DNA of 64,000 nucleotides from Brumimicrobium salinarum (GTDB lineage Bacteria; Bacteroidota; Bacteroidia; Flavobacteriales_D; Crocinitomicaceae). The DNA lies in contig NZ_PJNI01000013.1 of NCBI RefSeq assembly GCF_002844555.1, positions 1 through 64,000 of the forward strand, in the 5' to 3' direction. Positions 16,210 through 22,392 of this stretch are shown here, one piece after another (positions within the stretch are counted from its first letter, which is position 1; every line of letters begins with the position of its first letter). The notes beneath the pieces are model-generated. The model was not told where the DNA came from. It searched no databases and saw only the letters and a program-made list of their open reading frames with translations. The position numbers were made by a program, and so were the translations under genes.

Positions 16210-16303
16210 TGGAATAAATCATATTTTACTTAAATCAACCCTATAAAAAAAGAACCTATTCACAAAAAATAGACACAAAAGAGCAGGAACGAAAATTGAA
16301 GAT

Positions 16304-16663
16304 ATGACTTACCGTTATCAGAAAGATGGAGATGGTAACTTGTTGCGTAATCGATTGTACCATATTAATGATGCTGTTGCGAGCAATATTGACAGTACAG
16401 ATATTGATGATATGGGATTATATACTTCAGATCCAACTTTGATAAACACAGATAACAATTATTCTTATGATGCTGAAGGACGATTGGTTAAAGATAAACA
16501 AGAAGAAATTGATACAATAATCTGGACGGTGAGCGGAAAAGTAAAAGAAATACGTAGAAGTTTGGCAAGTGAAAAGAAAAACGTTATTTTTGAATGGAAG
16601 TGGAAATGGATATGTGGTGATGGGAGGATATCGTTATGGCTTCCAAGGTCAGGAAATGAATGA
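16304..16663 (+). pseudogene. Truncated Rhs/YD-repeat protein fragment
   Basis: The fragment begins mid-domain with TYRYQKDGDGNLLRNRLYHI and continues to NNYSYDAEGRLVKD and IIWTVSGKVKEIRRS, the usual YD-repeat run just before an Rhs core. Upstream the frame is open only to a stop near 16255, so thousands of bases of N-terminal Rhs sequence are missing. The frame is lost after about residue 95, and the Rhs core continues in another frame at 16569. The combined span is one base over a multiple of three, suggesting a single extra base or a small rearrangement. It is probably a displaced 3' tip rather than a working gene. Confidence 0.75.
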
Positions 16664-17537
16664 CGAGGTTAAAGGTGAGGGCAATAGTGTGAATTACAAG
16701 TATCGTATGCACGATCCAAGGGTTGGAAGGTTCTTTAATGTTGACCCATTAGCTTCTAAATTTCCACATAATAGTCCATATGCTTTTAGTGAAAATAGAG
16801 TTTTAGATGCGATTGAATTGGAGGGGCTCGAAGCCTTTTTTATACATGGAACTAAACAAGATGGTCAGTCATGGTCTAATAATGAAGCTGATAGAAAGTT
16901 AATGAAAGAGCTTCTGAAGTTTACTAATAATCAGACGACAAATTCCACTTTTGATTGGTCGGATTTGGCTTTTCAAACAAACTCAAAAGGTGAAAGACGT
17001 GAAGCAGCTGGAAGGTTGGTTGAATATATAATACAATTTAGAAAAGAAAATGCTATAATTGACGAAGAAATCACTTTGATTGGATATAGTCATGGTGGAA
17101 ATGTAGCTATACAAACAGCAGATATGATTTATGAAAGATTTGGTATTAAGGTAAATTTAATAACATTAAATACACCTGTCAATCCTTCTGCTGTTGACTT
17201 AAATCCATTTGAATATAAAAGTTGGGAAGATCCTGAGGCAACAACGGGAGTTAATGACCATATACATTTTTGGACGTTTGAGGATAAAGTCGCTGGTGGT
17301 CTTAGCGGTTCAGATTATTATGGACAAAGGATCTTTTGGGATGATAAAGTGAAAACAACTAATTACATGTTGCGTAGCAAATCTAATGTATCAGGATTAT
17401 TTAACAGTCATTTTTTAGAGAATGTTGGACCAATGAATATCAAGCTTAAAAAGGATAGAAAGTTAGATCCATTAGATAAACCTACAAGAATTCCTAGTAT
17501 TGAGGTAGGAGACCTTGAACAAGAACAAATGAAATAA
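16569..17537 (+). CDS. Rhs core end with lipase-like (alpha/beta-hydrolase) C-terminal tip
   Basis: Residues about 18-72 are the end of an Rhs core: GGYRYGFQGQEMNDEVKGEG, a YKYRMHDPRVGRFFNVDPLA variant of the usual DxGxRYYDPxxGRF motif, and PYAFSENRVLDAIELEG. The variable tip from about residue 80 starts AFFIHGTKQDG and contains the nucleophile elbow GYSHGG (GxSxG), as in lipases and other serine hydrolases, then a helical C-terminus. Rhs tips of this position are usually toxins. A four-helix membrane protein follows after 19 bp, fitting a toxin/immunity pair. The gene lacks its own secretion and shell regions, so it may be an orphan tip awaiting recombination. Confidence 0.72.
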   Translation: MKRKTLFLNGSGNGYVVMGGYRYGFQGQEMNDEVKGEGNSVNYKYRMHDPRVGRFFNVDPLASKFPHNSPYAFSENRVLDAIELEGLEAFFIHGTKQDGQSWSNNEADRKLMKELLKFTNNQTTNSTFDWSDLAFQTNSKGERREAAGRLVEYIIQFRKENAIIDEEITLIGYSHGGNVAIQTADMIYERFGIKVNLITLNTPVNPSAVDLNPFEYKSWEDPEATTGVNDHIHFWTFEDKVAGGLSGSDYYGQRIFWDDKVKTTNYMLRSKSNVSGLFNSHFLENVGPMNIKLKKDRKLDPLDKPTRIPSIEVGDLEQEQMK

Positions 17538-17556
17538 TTCGACACTTATCTGATTT

Positions 17557-17889
17557 ATGAAGGCTTTACGATTGTATATTTCAATATTTTGTAGTATCTG
17601 TATTTTATACCTTGCAATTTGCTTATTAGATTCCAAATATGGATATGAGATTTTCTTAATTTTTGGTGTTTTTGCTCCTATAAGAATAATTATGATTTTA
17701 ACGAATGATGTCTTAATTCTAAAAAATAGATTTATAATTTTAATATCTTCTGTAATAATTATCTGTTTATCGGTTTACTGGGGAAAACATAATGAGACAT
17801 ACTTATTAGCATGCATTCTAATACTTTCCTTTATAGACTTACTTATAGACTTAATCATTTTATACCGACTAAAGAAGAATCGTTTTTGA
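17557..17889 (+). CDS. Four-helix integral membrane protein, candidate immunity protein
   Basis: The 110-residue protein has four hydrophobic segments, at about 5-25, 30-50, 55-75 and 80-103, with short charged loops and a basic C-terminus (YRLKKNRF). I recognise no family. It lies 19 bp downstream of the lipase-like Rhs tip on the same strand, where immunity genes normally sit. A membrane location would suit neutralising a phospholipase-type toxin. The immunity role is inferred from position only. Confidence 0.6.
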   Translation: MKALRLYISIFCSICILYLAICLLDSKYGYEIFLIFGVFAPIRIIMILTNDVLILKNRFIILISSVIIICLSVYWGKHNETYLLACILILSFIDLLIDLIILYRLKKNRF

Positions 17890-18058
17890 GTGCATATTCC
17901 GCAACAAGAAAATATCAATTGATAAATGGACATCAAGGCTATTATTAGTCAAGGTAAATTAAAAACGTATGGTGTAAACAGTAGCTTTTTACAAATTTAT
18001 TGGTCTCATCCATCACTAAAAGAAAATAATTTTTACTTGTTTGTATTTACCGCGCAAG

Positions 18059-18101
18059 TCCCGAGACAAAAGCGAAAAGAACTCTTCGTTACAACGAAGT
18101 T
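18059..18101 (+). repeat. Intergenic repeat R3, copy 1
   Basis: A 43-nt sequence from TCCCGAGACAAAAGCG to AACGAAGTT recurs at 21911-21953 with about four differences. It includes hairpin CTTCGTT/AACGAAG. A short stretch like the start of repeat R2 (TTCCGCAAC) is also present at about 17897. The 465-nt gap 17890-18354 otherwise holds the 5' REP and leader of the RAYT unit. Confidence 0.65.
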
Positions 18102-18197
18102 GATAAATAAGGGGGAATACTATAAATCCCAATTTTTAATTCTTTCAGGTGCAGATTTTTACCAATAGAATTTGAAAAGAATGAATAAGAAAGTAAT

Positions 18198-18987
18198 CCC
18201 CAAGCTGCCGCGAGATTTAGCGCAGCTTCTCGTGGCCTTGGGTCTCCAAACATATATCTCAGTCAAAAAAGCTCACAAAAAACATCATTCCATAAACCTT
18301 GATTGAATAATTTTCACTAACTTATTTAGTATTAACCCAATAAGCCTAAATCAAATGAGTAGAAATTATCGGTTTCACAACCCTGAAGCACCTTATTTTG
18401 TAAGTTTTTCAGTTGTAGAATGGTTAGATGTATTTACAAGAAATGAATACAAAGACATTTTAATTGACAGTTTACATTATTGTCAAGAAAAAAAAGGAAT
18501 GGAAATTTACGCATGGTGTATAATGTCAAATCATGTCCATTTAGTTTTTAGAAGTACTGAAGGAATACCACCAGGTCAGTTACTCGGAAGTTTTAAACGA
18601 CATACAAGCATGGCTGTCGTAAAAGCAATTAAAGAAAATGACAGGGAAAGTAGAAAAGAAAATTTGTTGGAAACTTTTAAACACAATGGAAGTAAAAAAT
18701 CTAATGTAACATATAATCAATTCTGGCGACAAGACAATAAACCAATCGAATTATGGAGTAATTTTGTAATTTCTCAAAAAATTAGATATATCCATAATAA
18801 TCCTGTAGAGCAAGGACTTGTTTTTAGACCAGAAGATTATCCATACAGCAGCGCAGTAGACTATAGTGGTGAGAAAGGTGTTTTAAATGGAGTTGTGGTT
18901 GTTGGATTGTAAAATATTTGTATTTTTAAACAAGGTAATAGTTAGGATTCAGACTACCACGAGATGAAATCTCGCGGTAGCGGGGGG
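18198..18987 (+). mobile_element. RAYT/REP element, copy 1
   Basis: The unit is bounded by two REP-like palindromes. The 5' one at 18198-18242 has outer arms CCCAAG/CTTGGG and an inner stem GCCGCGAGA/TCTCGTGGC. The 3' one at 18954-18980 has CTACCACGAGAT/ATCTCGCGGTAG, followed by G6. Between them is one transposase gene. A copy at 20217-21005 differs by about six substitutions and one single-base indel over 790 nt. Confidence 0.85.
18355..18912 (+). CDS. REP-associated tyrosine transposase (Y1, IS200-like), copy 1
   Basis: The 185-residue protein has the HUH metal-binding motif NHVHLVF at about residues 60-66, N-terminal YRFHNPEAPYFVSF and the catalytic Tyr in RYIHNNPVEQG near residue 146. 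RAYTs are single-strand DNA transposases linked to spread of REP palindromes; this gene sits between two such palindromes. It differs from copy 2 only in two residues (His/Arg in the KxNGSKK stretch and Val/Gly after EQGL). Both copies look intact. Confidence 0.92.
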   Translation: MSRNYRFHNPEAPYFVSFSVVEWLDVFTRNEYKDILIDSLHYCQEKKGMEIYAWCIMSNHVHLVFRSTEGIPPGQLLGSFKRHTSMAVVKAIKENDRESRKENLLETFKHNGSKKSNVTYNQFWRQDNKPIELWSNFVISQKIRYIHNNPVEQGLVFRPEDYPYSSAVDYSGEKGVLNGVVVVGL

Positions 18988-19152
18988 ATTACTAAGCATT
19001 GGAGAGAAGATGGTATTAAAGAAATTGAAAATACAATTCGACGCAATGAAAGTGAATTACAAGGTGTACAGAATAGTTTAGAAGTTAAAACTAAAGAACT
19101 TAATTATCTTATAGATAACTATACTGAGGGGATTAAGAAACAGGAGGATTGA
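18964..19152 (+). pseudogene. Orphan C-terminal tip 1, fused in frame to the 3' REP of RAYT copy 1
   Basis: The frame starts inside the 3' REP (translated MKSRGSGG) and continues into ITKHWREDGIKEIENTI and a charged coiled-coil-like stretch, ending with KKQED. It looks like the last 55 residues of a larger protein cut off by, or joined to, the RAYT unit. The same REP-encoded leader in the same frame begins tip 2 at 20982. No function is recognised. Confidence 0.5.
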
Positions 19153-19200
19153 TTTAATGAATTGTATGTTATGTATTTGAGTCTATAAGGATAGCATAAA

Positions 19201-19533
19201 CTATTTTTTTATAAAAGTTTTACGCACTATTTTTCCTTTTTCTTTCAAAGCTAAAACGAGAGTATCTTTTGAGGCCTGTATTACTTTAATAGAATCTTTT
19301 AATTTTAGTTCATTAGTGAAGTATAGATAGTCATTCTTATTCTCATAGTTAAGCTTAAGTTGATGATTCTCTTCAGGTATTTTAAAAGTCAGTTCATTTT
19401 TGTTAATTTCTAAGATGATGTTTGAATCTTCATTAAACCAATGACCAATGATTTTATTCTGCCCACAACTGTAGAGTAAAAAAGCTATGAACAATGAATA
19501 AATGTATAAATGTTTATTTTTAAAGACTTTCAT
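19201..19533 (-). CDS. Small lipoprotein of unknown function
   Basis: The 110-residue protein has a lipobox at LLYSC (Cys23) and a beta-rich body starting IIGHWFNED, resembling small lipocalin-like lipoproteins of Bacteroidota. It is convergent with the orphan tip ending 49 bp away and lies downstream of an XRE regulator on the same strand. It could be an immunity lipoprotein or unrelated cargo; the sequence does not decide. Confidence 0.6.
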   Translation of the reverse strand: MKVFKNKHLYIYSLFIAFLLYSCGQNKIIGHWFNEDSNIILEINKNELTFKIPEENHQLKLNYENKNDYLYFTNELKLKDSIKVIQASKDTLVLALKEKGKIVRKTFIKK

Positions 19534-19573
19534 TAGGATAATTATTTGCTTTGAATTACTTTGCTGTGCACTT

Positions 19574-19909
19574 TCATAGCGCAGTAATATTTTTAAGTTT
19601 AGCAGCTTTAATCAAATTATCAAGGGCATAAAATATATGAACTTTATCTTCTTTTGAAAGTTGTTCTATGTCTTGTAATCGTTGCATTGTTTTTTTATCC
19701 AGAATCATTTTGTCTGTTTTCCCGAGTAAGTAATCCATACTTACGCTTAACGCATCTGCAATTTTAGAAGCTACCTCAATAGACGGTTTAATTTCTCCTC
19801 TTTCATATCTTCCTACAATAGGTGCAGAAGTTCCAATTTTCTTAGCTAAATCATCTTGCGACAATTTTAGTTGCTTTCTTAATATTGATATTTTTTCTCC
19901 AAAAGTCAT
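19574..19909 (-). CDS. XRE-family helix-turn-helix regulator
   Basis: The 111-residue protein has a Cro/CI-type HTH at residues 5-62 (LSQDDLAKKIGTSAPIVGRY, then EVASKIADALSVSMDYLLG) and a helical C-terminal dimerisation tail. It resembles small phage or toxin-antitoxin-type regulators. It is 40 bp upstream of the lipoprotein gene on the same strand. Location between two RAYT copies suggests accessory cargo. Confidence 0.85.
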   Translation of the reverse strand: MTFGEKISILRKQLKLSQDDLAKKIGTSAPIVGRYERGEIKPSIEVASKIADALSVSMDYLLGKTDKMILDKKTMQRLQDIEQLSKEDKVHIFYALDNLIKAAKLKNITAL

Positions 19910-20017
19910 ACTTAAATGCTTTATAACCCTCTAAACACAAGGTTATGGCAAATATACAATACTTTTTGGTGATAAAAAACATCTATAAAAACAAAAAAGC
20001 CGAGAAAGTTACCAACA

Positions 20018-20216
20018 CGAATGCACACTCCACATAACTCCGCAACAAAACTGTTCCAATATTGGTCAGCCGTGAAAAGTCACCTCAATTTCAAGGATTT
20101 TAAATTTTCTCAATCCAAAATTTCTTGATTTGAGAAATTGATTTGATATTTGGCCAAACTCAGTGAATTTGTCGAGTGAATAACTCTTTTATCGTTATAG
20201 TTTTGAAAACAAGACG
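20018..20216 (+). repeat. Intergenic repeat R2, copy A
   Basis: About 200 nt that align along their length with 21972-22172. Anchors are CTGTTCCAATATTGGTCAGC, GATTTTAAATTTTCTCAATC and a shared end CAAGACGC. Copy A ends exactly where the 5' REP of RAYT copy 2 begins. The gap 19910-20372 contains only this repeat, the REP and the transposase leader. Confidence 0.65.
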
Positions 20217-21005
20217 CCCCAAGCTGCCGCGAGATTTAGCGCAGCTTCTCGTGGCCTTGGGTCTCCAAACATATATCTCAGTCAAAAAAGCTCACAAAAA
20301 CATCATTCCATAAACCTTGATTGAATAATTTTCACTAACTTATTTAGTATTAACCCAATAAACCTAAATCAAATGAGTAGAAATTATCGGTTTCACAACC
20401 CTGAAGCACCTTATTTTGTAAGTTTTTCAGTTGTAGAATGGTTAGATGTATTTACAAGAAATGAATACAAAGACATTTTAATTGACAGTTTACATTATTG
20501 TCAAGAAAAAAAAGGAATGGAAATTTACGCATGGTGTATAATGTCAAATCATGTCCATTTAGTTTTTAGAAGTACTGAAGGAATACCACCAGGTCAGTTA
20601 CTCGGAAGTTTTAAACGACATACAAGCATGGCTGTCGTAAAAGCAATTAAAGAAAATGACAGGGAAAGTAGAAAAGAAAATTTGTTGGAAACTTTTAAAC
20701 GCAATGGAAGTAAAAAATCTAATGTAACATATAATCAATTCTGGCGACAAGACAATAAACCAATTGAACTATGGAGTAATTTTGTAATTTCTCAAAAAAT
20801 TAGATATATCCATAATAATCCTGTAGAGCAAGGACTTGGTTTTAGACCAGAAGATTATCCATACAGCAGCGCAGTAGACTATAGTGGTGAGAAAGGTGTT
20901 TTAAATGGAGTTGTGGTTGTTGGATTGTAAAATATTTGTATTTTTAAACAAGGTAACAGTTAGGATTCAGACTACCACGAGATGAAATCTCGCGGTAGCG
21001 GGGGG
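20217..21005 (+). mobile_element. RAYT/REP element, copy 2
   Basis: This is a near-identical direct repeat of 18198-18987, with the same 5' and 3' REP palindromes and a single intact transposase gene. The two units begin 2,019 bp apart. Near identity implies recent duplication or gene conversion. Confidence 0.85.
20373..20930 (+). CDS. REP-associated tyrosine transposase (Y1, IS200-like), copy 2
   Basis: This 185-residue protein is the same as the copy at 18355 except for two residues. The HUH motif NHVHLVF and the catalytic Tyr in RYIHNNPVEQG are both present. It is expected to nick and rejoin single-stranded REP DNA. Immediately downstream of its 3' REP lies a second, different orphan coding tip. 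Confidence 0.92.
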   Translation: MSRNYRFHNPEAPYFVSFSVVEWLDVFTRNEYKDILIDSLHYCQEKKGMEIYAWCIMSNHVHLVFRSTEGIPPGQLLGSFKRHTSMAVVKAIKENDRESRKENLLETFKRNGSKKSNVTYNQFWRQDNKPIELWSNFVISQKIRYIHNNPVEQGLGFRPEDYPYSSAVDYSGEKGVLNGVVVVGL

Positions 21006-21158
21006 AATACTCCAGCACAATCAAGAGCAAATGCCAATCAAATTCGGAATGATTTAATTGATGCAGGTGCGATTCCAGCAAATATACGTGTGATCCCGCT
21101 GTCAACTCCTCCTCCTTCAGCTAGTAGTACTGTTCCAGATGGACCAACTCTATGGTGA
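20982..21158 (+). pseudogene. Orphan C-terminal tip 2, fused in frame to the 3' REP of RAYT copy 2
   Basis: The frame begins with the same REP-encoded MKSRGSGG as tip 1 but continues into an unrelated sequence starting NTPAQSRANANQIRNDLIDA and ending PDGPTLW. It stops 25 bp before the next lipoprotein gene. It appears to be the end of a larger protein. The shared junction frame in both tips suggests the REP served as a linker or recombination point. Confidence 0.5.
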
Positions 21159-21183
21159 TATTTTAAGAATTAAAAATGCAGAA

Positions 21184-21867
21184 ATGTTGAAATTTTTATT
21201 AATAATAATTGTTATTCTAATTAGTAGTAAATCTTCTTGTCAAGAAAAGAATTATGGATATACTTTCTTAGGAGAAAATGGAGAAAGAATTATAGAGAAA
21301 ACCTCTGTGACCCCTTCTTCAATGTATTCAAATTATTACATTGATTCTAGTTCACAAAAACTCTATACGGGAATTGTTATACAAATGCATGAATCAGTTA
21401 ACAAACCTATAGACTCAATGTGCATTTTCAATGGGGTTTTAGATGGATACCATAAAGATTATGAGTCTATAATATGGAACGTAAAATACCCTAAAAGAAT
21501 AAACTACATTAATCAAAATAAAAGATTTGGAGTATATATAAGAAATTCCTTATCAGACTCGACAAGAGCGTGGTGTTATTTAAAGCTATTCAGAGATAAC
21601 GTTTATTATACTTATGAAATTGAATTTAAAAAGCGAAGAATAAAACTAAAACGGGCAAGAAGAGATGACAACTTAGAAAAATTGAAATTAGAAAAAGACA
21701 GGTTTAGGTTTAAATGCTTAGATGAACTTGAAGAATATTTTAAGTCAGAAGGGGAAAAAGGAATAATCTCAGATGAAATTTTAGATAAATGTAGAAGGCT
21801 TGGTTTTTTTAGTAATGAACCCATTGAAGAGCCTATTATTTTAGGGAATTGTAATATAAAAGAGTAA
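21184..21867 (+). CDS. Predicted lipoprotein, candidate partner of orphan tip 2
   Basis: Starting at ATG 21184, the 227-residue product has a signal with candidate lipobox SKSSC and a mature part rich in Tyr, Lys and Arg. A basic-acidic helix lies at about 145-190 and a C-terminal segment of the form ISDEILDKCRRLGFF follows. No family is recognised. Position 25 bp after tip 2 on the same strand mirrors the toxin/immunity order of the Rhs lipase tip and its membrane partner. Function is inferred only from this order. Confidence 0.5.
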   Translation: MLKFLLIIIVILISSKSSCQEKNYGYTFLGENGERIIEKTSVTPSSMYSNYYIDSSSQKLYTGIVIQMHESVNKPIDSMCIFNGVLDGYHKDYESIIWNVKYPKRINYINQNKRFGVYIRNSLSDSTRAWCYLKLFRDNVYYTYEIEFKKRRIKLKRARRDDNLEKLKLEKDRFRFKCLDELEEYFKSEGEKGIISDEILDKCRRLGFFSNEPIEEPIILGNCNIKE

Positions 21868-21910
21868 TTGCCCCAAGCTCGTGCGCAATCCGTACAGCTG
21901 TCGGCGCTAC

Positions 21911-21953
21911 TCCCGAGGTAAAAGCGAAAAGAACCCTTCGTTGTAACGAAGTT
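21911..21953 (+). repeat. Intergenic repeat R3, copy 2
   Basis: Second copy of the 43-nt sequence at 18059-18101, again with hairpin CTTCGTT/AACGAAG, and again just after a candidate immunity gene. Confidence 0.65.
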
Positions 21954-21971
21954 TATTGAAAAACATGATGT

Positions 21972-22172
21972 TACGTGTGCGTACTCTACATCATTCCGCA
22001 AAAAAACTGTTCCAATATTGGTCAGCTTTGAAAAATGAGCTCAATTTTGAAGATTTTAAATTTTCTCAATCTAAGTTCTCTTGATTTAAAAAACTTTACT
22101 GGTGTTTTGTTAAATTCAATATTTTTTCGTGAGAATAGTCTTGTTAGCACCGTAATTTTGATAGCAAGACGC
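21972..22172 (+). repeat. Intergenic repeat R2, copy B
   Basis: Homologous to 20018-20216, more diverged than the RAYT copies. It follows R3 copy 2 and ends at CAAGACGC. The 520-nt stretch 21868-22388 holds R3, R2 and a solo REP, with no convincing gene. Confidence 0.6.
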
Positions 22173-22182
22173 ACGCTCCCCA

Positions 22183-22392
22183 TCAGACACAAACTAACGG
22201 ACAACCATTGAACTCCCGATTCTCTTGAAGTCTTTCTTTCTGCTCATTCTTTATCTGTTCTCTATATTTTGCTTTGTCAGGTTTTTCACCATTTAAAACC
22301 CCAAGGGCTGCCGCGAGATTTGGCGAAGCCTTTTCGTGGCCTTTGTCATCATACAGATTATTTTCTAAAGAATCACAATCAAAAAATATCAA
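22183..22392 (-). pseudogene. Short REP-containing coding remnant
   Basis: A 69-codon frame reads through the solo REP on the minus strand (KGHEKASPNLAAALG) into a charged helix, GEKPDKAKYREQIKNEQKE. It overlaps the stop of the flavin reductase by 4 bp. It could be a decayed C-terminal tip like the two upstream, or chance coding of a repeat. No function is claimed. Confidence 0.3.
22299..22345 (+). repeat. Solo REP palindrome, 5'-REP type
   Basis: It shares the GCTGCCGCGAGATTT core and the TCGTGGC arm with the 5' REPs at 18198 and 20217, but no transposase is attached. It is a REP with a branched loop (GGC/GCC). Confidence 0.7.

What the first reader, a model, noticed from the sequence alone, without database searches (positions are those of the whole stretch)
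16304..22392. Candidate undescribed system: RAYT-bounded toxin-tip cassettes
The module order recurs: coding tip, small membrane or lipoprotein gene, repeat R3, repeat R2, then RAYT with REP or a solo REP. It fits the Rhs tip plus membrane protein and tip 2 plus lipoprotein; the tip 1 interval is only partly alike. This suggests that REP/RAYT activity assembles or trades toxin-immunity tips in Bacteroidota.
Basis: inference. Interest (0 to 1): 0.75.

Follow-up and report, generated by a model that had tools for sequence, protein, structure and literature searches.

The report
Toxin-immunity scraps at jumping-palindrome boundaries
In a marine bacterium, leftover pieces of cell-to-cell toxin genes with their likely protective partner genes lie in a row separated by a small transposase and its palindromes; in relatives this transposase lies beside such toxin genes more often than chance, but whether it shuffles them or only sits there is not shown.

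Summary
The window is from a Brumimicrobium-like genome (Crocinitomicaceae). Positions 16.2-22.4 kb hold an island absent from the four congeners examined. It contains three displaced Rhs toxin-end cassettes and two near-identical, intact RAYT genes (REP-associated tyrosine transposases). RAYTs over the curated NF047646 cut-off lie within 5 kb of Rhs cores more than expected: 6 of 37 in 56 relatives' genomes, own genome excluded, against 0.33 expected. Low-scoring RAYT hits (1 of 78) and DDE transposases (0 of 38, little power) do not. The seven over-cut-off loci, the window included, are all codirectional with the core. Repeat R2 is an Rhs 3' flank found also in a genome without such RAYTs, so it is not part of the RAYT element. 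RAYT and an Rhs core fragment are 99% identical to another species' copies, flanking genes 68-81%, so both moved recently. Best reading: an orphan-immunity array built by Rhs displacement, with REP/RAYT lodged at cassette junctions. RAYT-driven assembly is neither shown nor excluded. Two right/left asymmetry tests were negative or weak, and no intact homologue of a truncated tip was found.

The parts
16266..16593 (+). Rhs core fragment, 5' truncated, 98.8% identical to an Rhs fragment beside a REP in G001:C6; the frame breaks after it
16629..17537 (+). Rhs core C-terminus (TIGR03696) joined to an alpha/beta-hydrolase (DUF676-like) tip
   Evidence: TIGR03696 33.2 bits in the genome search (cut-off 32.5; 30.6 bits for the ORF alone), PF05057 21.4 bits (cut-off 20.3)
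17557..17889 (+). small membrane protein, presumed immunity gene of the lipase-like tip
   Evidence: position and hydrophobic sequence; no family hit
18052..18104 (+). repeat R3, first copy
18198..18243 (+). left REP of the first RAYT
   Evidence: z -3.8
18355..18912 (+). RAYT 1 (HUH/Y1 transposase, H60-V-H62, Y145)
   Evidence: NF047646 90.7 bits (cut-off 80)
18952..18987 (+). right REP with GGTAG and G-run of the first RAYT
   Evidence: z -3.3
18988..19152 (+). presumed truncated toxin-tip tail 1 (open frame from the REP to a stop)
   Evidence: inference; Pfam scan without a match over cut-off
19201..19533 (-). small lipoprotein-like gene on the opposite strand
   Evidence: no family over cut-off
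19574..19909 (-). RstR-like HTH repressor
   Evidence: NF041951 98.6 bits (cut-off 80)
20017..20216 (+). repeat R2, first copy, cut at its right end by the next REP
20217..20263 (+). left REP of the second RAYT
20373..20930 (+). RAYT 2, 99% identical DNA to RAYT 1
20970..21005 (+). right REP of the second RAYT
21006..21158 (+). presumed truncated toxin-tip tail 2
   Evidence: inference; no Pfam match
21139..21867 (+). lipoprotein-like gene, presumed orphan immunity gene (a likelier start is at 21187)
   Evidence: no family over cut-off
21904..21956 (+). repeat R3, second copy
21983..22192 (+). repeat R2, second copy
22296..22343 (+). solo REP near the right end of the island
   Evidence: weak fold

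Best explanation
An island of three displaced (orphan) Rhs toxin-end/immunity cassettes inserted between glnIII and an FMN-reductase gene. Shown: the island is absent in the four congeners examined; the Rhs core is truncated and its frame broken; intact REP-RAYT-REP elements sit between small-gene 3' flanks and short open tails, in the direction of the cassettes; RAYT and Rhs pieces were both exchanged recently between species. Inferred: the tails are toxin scraps and the small whole genes are immunity genes kept for protection against kin that still carry the toxins. New cassettes displaced old ones by recombination at shared Rhs core and 3' flank (R2/R3) sequences; RAYT/REP copies settled in these 3' flanks, where insertion does no harm, and then gave further homology for deletion and duplication, as in G001, where one REP/RAYT-remnant/Rhs-core handle occurs three times, twice with complete but different tips. 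No step needs RAYT to move the cassettes.
For: Empty site: glnIII and FMN reductase about 150-165 bp apart in G001, G003, G004, G005. Enrichment: 6 of 29 over-cut-off RAYTs within 5 kb of an Rhs core in the family set, expected 0.21; without the own genome 4 of 25, expected 0.17; with 29 further genomes, mostly other families, 6 of 37, expected 0.33. Controls: below-cut-off RAYT hits 1 of 55 and 0 of 23, PF01609 transposases 0 of 38 (compared by eye; expected 0.24). Seven over-cut-off loci: 7 of 7 codirectional (p 0.016), 6 with the RAYT downstream of the core; with three more pairs picked because near (one low-scoring hit, two fragments from the capped list) 10 of 10 and 9 of 10. R2: 14 sites in 5 of 58 genomes, 13 within 6 kb of an Rhs core, all 13 codirectional, 8 of the 14 in G006, which has no over-cut-off RAYT. 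RAYT 99.1% and Rhs fragment 98.8% identical to G001, against 68-81% for the five of six flanking genes that gave a DNA match. G001 handle: 95% identical block from the REP to the core/tip border. On the RAYT tree the toxin-neighbour label, given by me, needs 9 changes, at least 8 by starred branches. Published analogue: displaced effectors with kept immunity genes in Vibrio cholerae (PMC5361080, passages).
Against: No intact homologue of a tip tail was found (G009 tail: 1 of 379 genomes, itself; G003 tail: none in plasmids or viral contigs; the other tails were not searched in genomes), so 'tip tail' rests on open frames and position. Open frames running outwards from the RAYT are no longer on the right than on the left (36 of 41 RAYTs with enough flank, medians 40.5 and 40, p 0.94; 13 of one clade, p 0.65). 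Signal-peptide-like small genes: right 12 of 36, left 5 of 36, a weak excess. No presumed immunity gene matched a known immunity family over cut-off. The 5 kb limit was chosen after a first look; genomes are related and fragmented, which the Poisson test ignores; some below-cut-off RAYT rows are fragments. The label on the tree is weakly clustered (35 of 500 shuffles as low), and changes may be losses.
Confidence: 0.6

Rival explanations
1. REP/RAYT activity assembles or trades the cassettes: the transposase mobilises DNA between REP hairpins, carrying tip tails and immunity genes, much as a recombinase is thought to do in rAID arrays.
For: Cassettes lie between REPs of one orientation; the right REP directly abuts an open tail in own1, own2, C76 and C86-end, and, judged by eye, in G003, G008, G009, G012, G033; the repeated block in G001 starts at the REP edge; RAYT and Rhs fragments moved recently; R3 accompanies the RAYT at C65, away from any Rhs core.
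Against: In the search made (the island's DNA in 59 genomes, listing capped) no whole cassette was seen at a second place with the same RAYT; no target duplication or excised form seen; R2 lies beside Rhs without over-cut-off RAYT in G006; tails differ in length and look like scraps, not whole modules; seven of eleven own REP loci carry no clear tip.
Confidence: 0.15
2. Pure tolerance: Rhs islands are gene graveyards, any mobile element accumulates there, and RAYT has no special link.
For: Seven of eleven own REP loci are ordinary sites; a second REP family also sits in the G001 array; asymmetry tests negative or weak.
Against: DDE transposases near Rhs 0 of 38 and low-scoring RAYT hits 1 of 78, though the expectation is below 1 for each, so these controls have little power; strict codirection (7 of 7 over-cut-off loci) is not expected from tolerance alone.
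Confidence: 0.2
3. REPs are kept at the 3' ends of immunity genes for transcript stability or termination, and RAYTs ride on them; the cassette link is a by-product of 3'-UTR placement.
For: 6 of 7 over-cut-off RAYT loci lie downstream of and in line with the Rhs core; solo REPs lie between genes elsewhere in the genome; such roles are hypothesised for REPs (abstract of PMC3733652 in a search listing).
Against: Does not explain right REPs that run into tail frames or the Rhs core fragment.
Confidence: 0.05

Closest known systems
Orphan Rhs tip/immunity arrays and T6SS immunity arrays (Vibrio cholerae, PMC5361080, passages; Salmonella orphan Rhs, PMC3967940, start of abstract in a search listing)
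   Same: Displaced toxin 3' ends with kept immunity genes near a conserved toxin core
   Different: Here REP/RAYT elements lie at the junctions; the V. cholerae passages shown (12 of 15 places) name homologous and homology-facilitated illegitimate recombination and mention a transposase only for one disrupted cluster
rAID, recombinase-associated acquired interbacterial defence of Bacteroidales (PMC12247911, passages)
   Same: Tyrosine enzyme gene, co-oriented short immunity-like genes, conserved intergenic motifs, Bacteroidota
   Different: The enzyme here is an HUH/Y1 RAYT, not a tyrosine recombinase; toxin remnants are present; two genes on the opposite strand interrupt the row
RAYT/TnpAREP, with subclass 2.6 of Bacteroidetes (PMC6006769, passages)
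   Same: HUH and Y motifs, single gene flanked by inverted palindromes with copies elsewhere in the genome
   Different: The passages shown describe no Rhs or immunity cassettes; they do mention E. coli strains in which the RAYT locus was replaced by a toxin/antitoxin operon. Subclass was not tested here

Membership tests
RAYT (REP-associated tyrosine transposase) | Match to the curated family model | tested here: met
   NF047646 90.7 bits, cut-off 80
RAYT (REP-associated tyrosine transposase) | HUH motif and catalytic tyrosine | tested here: met
   H60 in 40 of 41, H62 and Y145 in 41 of 41 rows; the roles of these residues are recalled
RAYT (REP-associated tyrosine transposase) | Flanking inverted REP palindromes with solo copies in the genome | tested here: met
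   18 matches of the element in the own genome (40 of 76 candidates scored); 17 of them, one 5'-flank piece dropped, merge into 11 loci; folds
RAYT (REP-associated tyrosine transposase) | Single-strand cleavage at REP | not testable with these tools
   needs biochemistry
Orphan Rhs tip/immunity array | Displaced Rhs core remnant followed by tip and small gene | tested here: met
   16266-17889 only; before tails 1 and 2 no core was found
Orphan Rhs tip/immunity array | Tails are the C-termini of known toxins | tested here: inconclusive
   no homologue found for those searched
Orphan Rhs tip/immunity array | Small genes neutralise the toxins | not testable with these tools
   needs co-expression
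rAID | Predicted tyrosine recombinase at the head of the array | tested here: not met
   Pfam hits of the eight island ORFs scanned show Y1_Tnp and no recombinase
rAID | Array of co-oriented short immunity genes with conserved intergenic motifs | tested here: inconclusive
   two co-oriented small genes and two genes on the other strand; R2, R3 and REP recur

The most novel reading that the evidence does not exclude
A RAYT-based counterpart of rAID: the HUH transposase and its REP hairpins cut out, copy or insert toxin-tail/immunity cassettes at Rhs 3' flanks, so that a domesticated REP transposase builds orphan-immunity arrays in Flavobacteriales.
Probability: 0.12. Interest if true: 0.8.

Novelty: new variant of a known kind. 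Interest (0 to 1): 0.5.

Why it matters
How orphan immunity arrays grow is open (PMC12247911 calls the mechanism of rAID biogenesis an area of active research), and TnpAREP is described as a domesticated transposase, with REP dissemination poorly understood (abstract of PMC8266576 in a search listing). A recurrent, same-strand association of RAYTs with Rhs cassettes links the two questions and can be tested in cultivable Brumimicrobium species or in laboratory E. coli.

Tried and rejected
Rejected: R2/R3 as parts of the RAYT element (R2 occurs beside Rhs in G006 without over-cut-off RAYTs, R3 in G007). Rejected: the ATG in the REP loop as a designed start of the tails; it is in frame for win1, win2, C76 and the G001 handle, but C86-end has no ATG there and G008 is out of frame, no better than chance by eye. 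Rejected: a G-run as insertion target; the left REP has a matching C-run, so the run more likely belongs to the element (inference). Rejected: a known RNA in the island (no Rfam match up to E 1). Led nowhere: tip homologues, Pfam/NCBIfam for tails and small genes (the two G001 cassette proteins gave the Rhs core and, for one, a weak sub-cut-off hit), PADLOC (hits for the repressor only), PDB by sequence for the RAYT (no hit at E 0.01) and for the tip (two weak matches over the Rhs core part only). Null: outward open frames. Literature: of searches of one open-access library (3-15 rows shown of 3 to 1,365 papers; judged by title and start of abstract) none showed a paper joining RAYT or REP with Rhs or immunity cassettes; PMC3390384 was checked by passages (RAYTs and immunity genes in separate sections) and PMC10210955 likewise (Correia elements flank T6SS gene clusters in Neisseria). 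This is no proof of absence from print.
Full report
Setting. The window lies in an unnamed 3.41 Mb assembly of 86 contigs. The nearest named RAYT records are Brumimicrobium species and other Crocinitomicaceae or Bacteroidota (titles of 9 loci). Handles G001-G009 are of the same genus, G010-G035 of the same family, G036-G058 of the same order.

The island. Between glnIII and an FMN-reductase gene the window holds about 6.1 kb that is missing in G001, G003, G004 and G005, where the two genes lie about 150-165 bp apart (the other five congeners were not examined for this). It contains an Rhs core fragment with a broken frame and a lipase-like tip, a small membrane gene, two REP-RAYT-REP units, two short open frames directly after the right REPs, two genes on the opposite strand (a lipoprotein-like one and an RstR-like repressor), a lipoprotein-like gene on the main strand, two copies each of R2 and R3, and a solo REP.

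The RAYTs. Both pass the curated family cut-off (four in the genome pass, two distant ones do not), differ at 2 of 185 residues and keep the HUH pair and the tyrosine. The ends of the first fold as hairpins. This is an ordinary RAYT.

Is the link to Rhs more than chance? In the own genome 18 matches of the element were found (40 of 76 candidates scored); after dropping one 5'-flank piece they merge into 11 REP loci, of which 2 lie within 5 kb of one of the 3 Rhs cores (expected 0.10), one of them being the discovery locus. Two more (C76:176.6 kb, C86:213.7 kb) carry tail-like frames and small genes. The other seven are plain sites: C65, between a large gene and one read from the other strand (a 7-codon frame after its REP is too short to judge), and six intergenic singles. 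In 27 family genomes I mapped RAYTs (78 rows) and Rhs cores (84 rows). Of 29 RAYTs over the cut-off, the own four included, 6 lie within 5 kb of a core (expected 0.21); of 55 below it, 1 (expected 0.44). Without the own genome: 4 of 25, expected 0.17. In 29 further genomes, 22 of them of other families, 2 of 12 (expected 0.16) and 0 of 23 (expected 0.13). Together without the own genome 6 of 37, expected 0.33, Poisson p about 1e-6. DDE transposases in 28 genomes: 0 of 38 rows, expected 0.24, a control with little power. The seven over-cut-off loci near a core (own window counted once) are all codirectional with it, six with the RAYT downstream; with three more pairs that I picked because they are near (G010, G002, G022:C21; low-scoring or fragments) it is 10 of 10 and 9 of 10, gaps 0.5-3.4 kb. 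One over-cut-off pair about 7 kb apart (G040) is in opposite directions, one at 7.7 kb (G003) in the same. The 5 kb limit was chosen; kinship and contig breaks are ignored.

What lies at the right end. In own1, own2, C76 and C86-end (a REP pair without RAYT) the right REP runs into an open frame; in the last three it ends close to the start of a small membrane or lipoprotein-like gene in line, in own1 no such gene follows. By eye a tail, of fewer than 20 codons in two cases, and a small gene in line follow in G003, G008, G009, G012 and G033, most with other REP sequences. In one starred clade of 13 RAYTs that makes 8 with and 5 without (labels mine). A mechanical test for signal-peptide-like small genes gave 12 of 36 on the right against 5 of 36 on the left. 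Outward open frames do not differ (clade alone). So the tail pattern is suggestive, not proven. The two tails searched have no homologue in what I could search, and no tail scanned gave a family over cut-off.

R2 and R3. The R2 core was sought in 58 genomes: 14 sites in 5 genomes, all of this genus, none for the reversed control pattern. Thirteen lie within 6 kb of an Rhs core, all on its strand, 11 downstream; the fourteenth, in G008, follows a tail and lipoprotein-like gene. G006 has eight R2 sites and no RAYT over the cut-off. R2 is therefore an Rhs 3' flank. R3 occurs near Rhs fragments in G007, with no REP of this family in the stretch held, and once beside a RAYT without Rhs, at C65.

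Movement. Against G001 the RAYT is 99.1% and the Rhs fragment 98.8% identical, five flanking genes 68-81% (a sixth gave no DNA match). The same Rhs fragment in G001 lies about 14 bp after a REP and is followed by different sequence. On G001:C16 a handle of REP, RAYT remnant and half a right REP fused to an Rhs core fragment occurs three times: the first is cut after about 250 bp by another REP, the other two continue into different tips and share a 95% identical block that begins at the REP and ends at the core/tip border. RAYT pieces are thus copied together with Rhs cores, by recombination or otherwise. On the RAYT tree the toxin-neighbour label needs 9 gains or losses, 8 forced by starred branches, and is only weakly clustered (35 of 500 shuffles as low), so it is not one inherited insertion.

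Reading. Displacement of toxin ends with retention of immunity genes is known (PMC5361080, passages). The new part is the recurrent, same-strand presence of RAYT/REP at the junctions. I think the elements settle in the 3' flanks and add homology; that they act as the shuffler is possible and would resemble rAID (PMC12247911, passages), whose recombinase was not found among the ORFs scanned here.

Noticed in passing
window 19574-19909 (-): RstR-like repressor beside a lipoprotein-like gene on the strand opposite to the cassettes; similar DNA in G022:C25 and G009:C109, a similar HTH left of the RAYT in G009.
   Followed up: partly
L026 6747-6900 (own C86, about 149.7 kb): A variant REP runs directly into what looks by eye like the C-terminus of a RelE/ParE toxin.
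   Followed up: no
L066 6372-7102 (G005:C2): Two REPs of one orientation enclose what looks by eye like a YafQ-type toxin-antitoxin pair.
   Followed up: no
L074 (G037:C1), right of the RAYT: HigB/HigA-like genes (by eye) follow the RAYT, and an R2-like half core precedes it although the genome is of another family.
   Followed up: partly
window 20023-20216 and 21983-22192; L058, L068, L089, L092: R2 copies begin near GCACACTCC and, where complete, end with GACGCACGCTCCC-like sequence, as if bounded by a short direct repeat; nature unknown.
   Followed up: partly
own contigs C1, C5, C86: All three Rhs core matches of the assembly lie in open frames of 315-473 residues; no full-length Rhs gene was seen, perhaps lost at contig ends.
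   Followed up: no
L058 (G001:C16): A second REP family (CTGCAGTTGTACTGCTGCG) also lies in the Rhs array; a similar palindrome flanks another RAYT pair of that genome.
   Followed up: no
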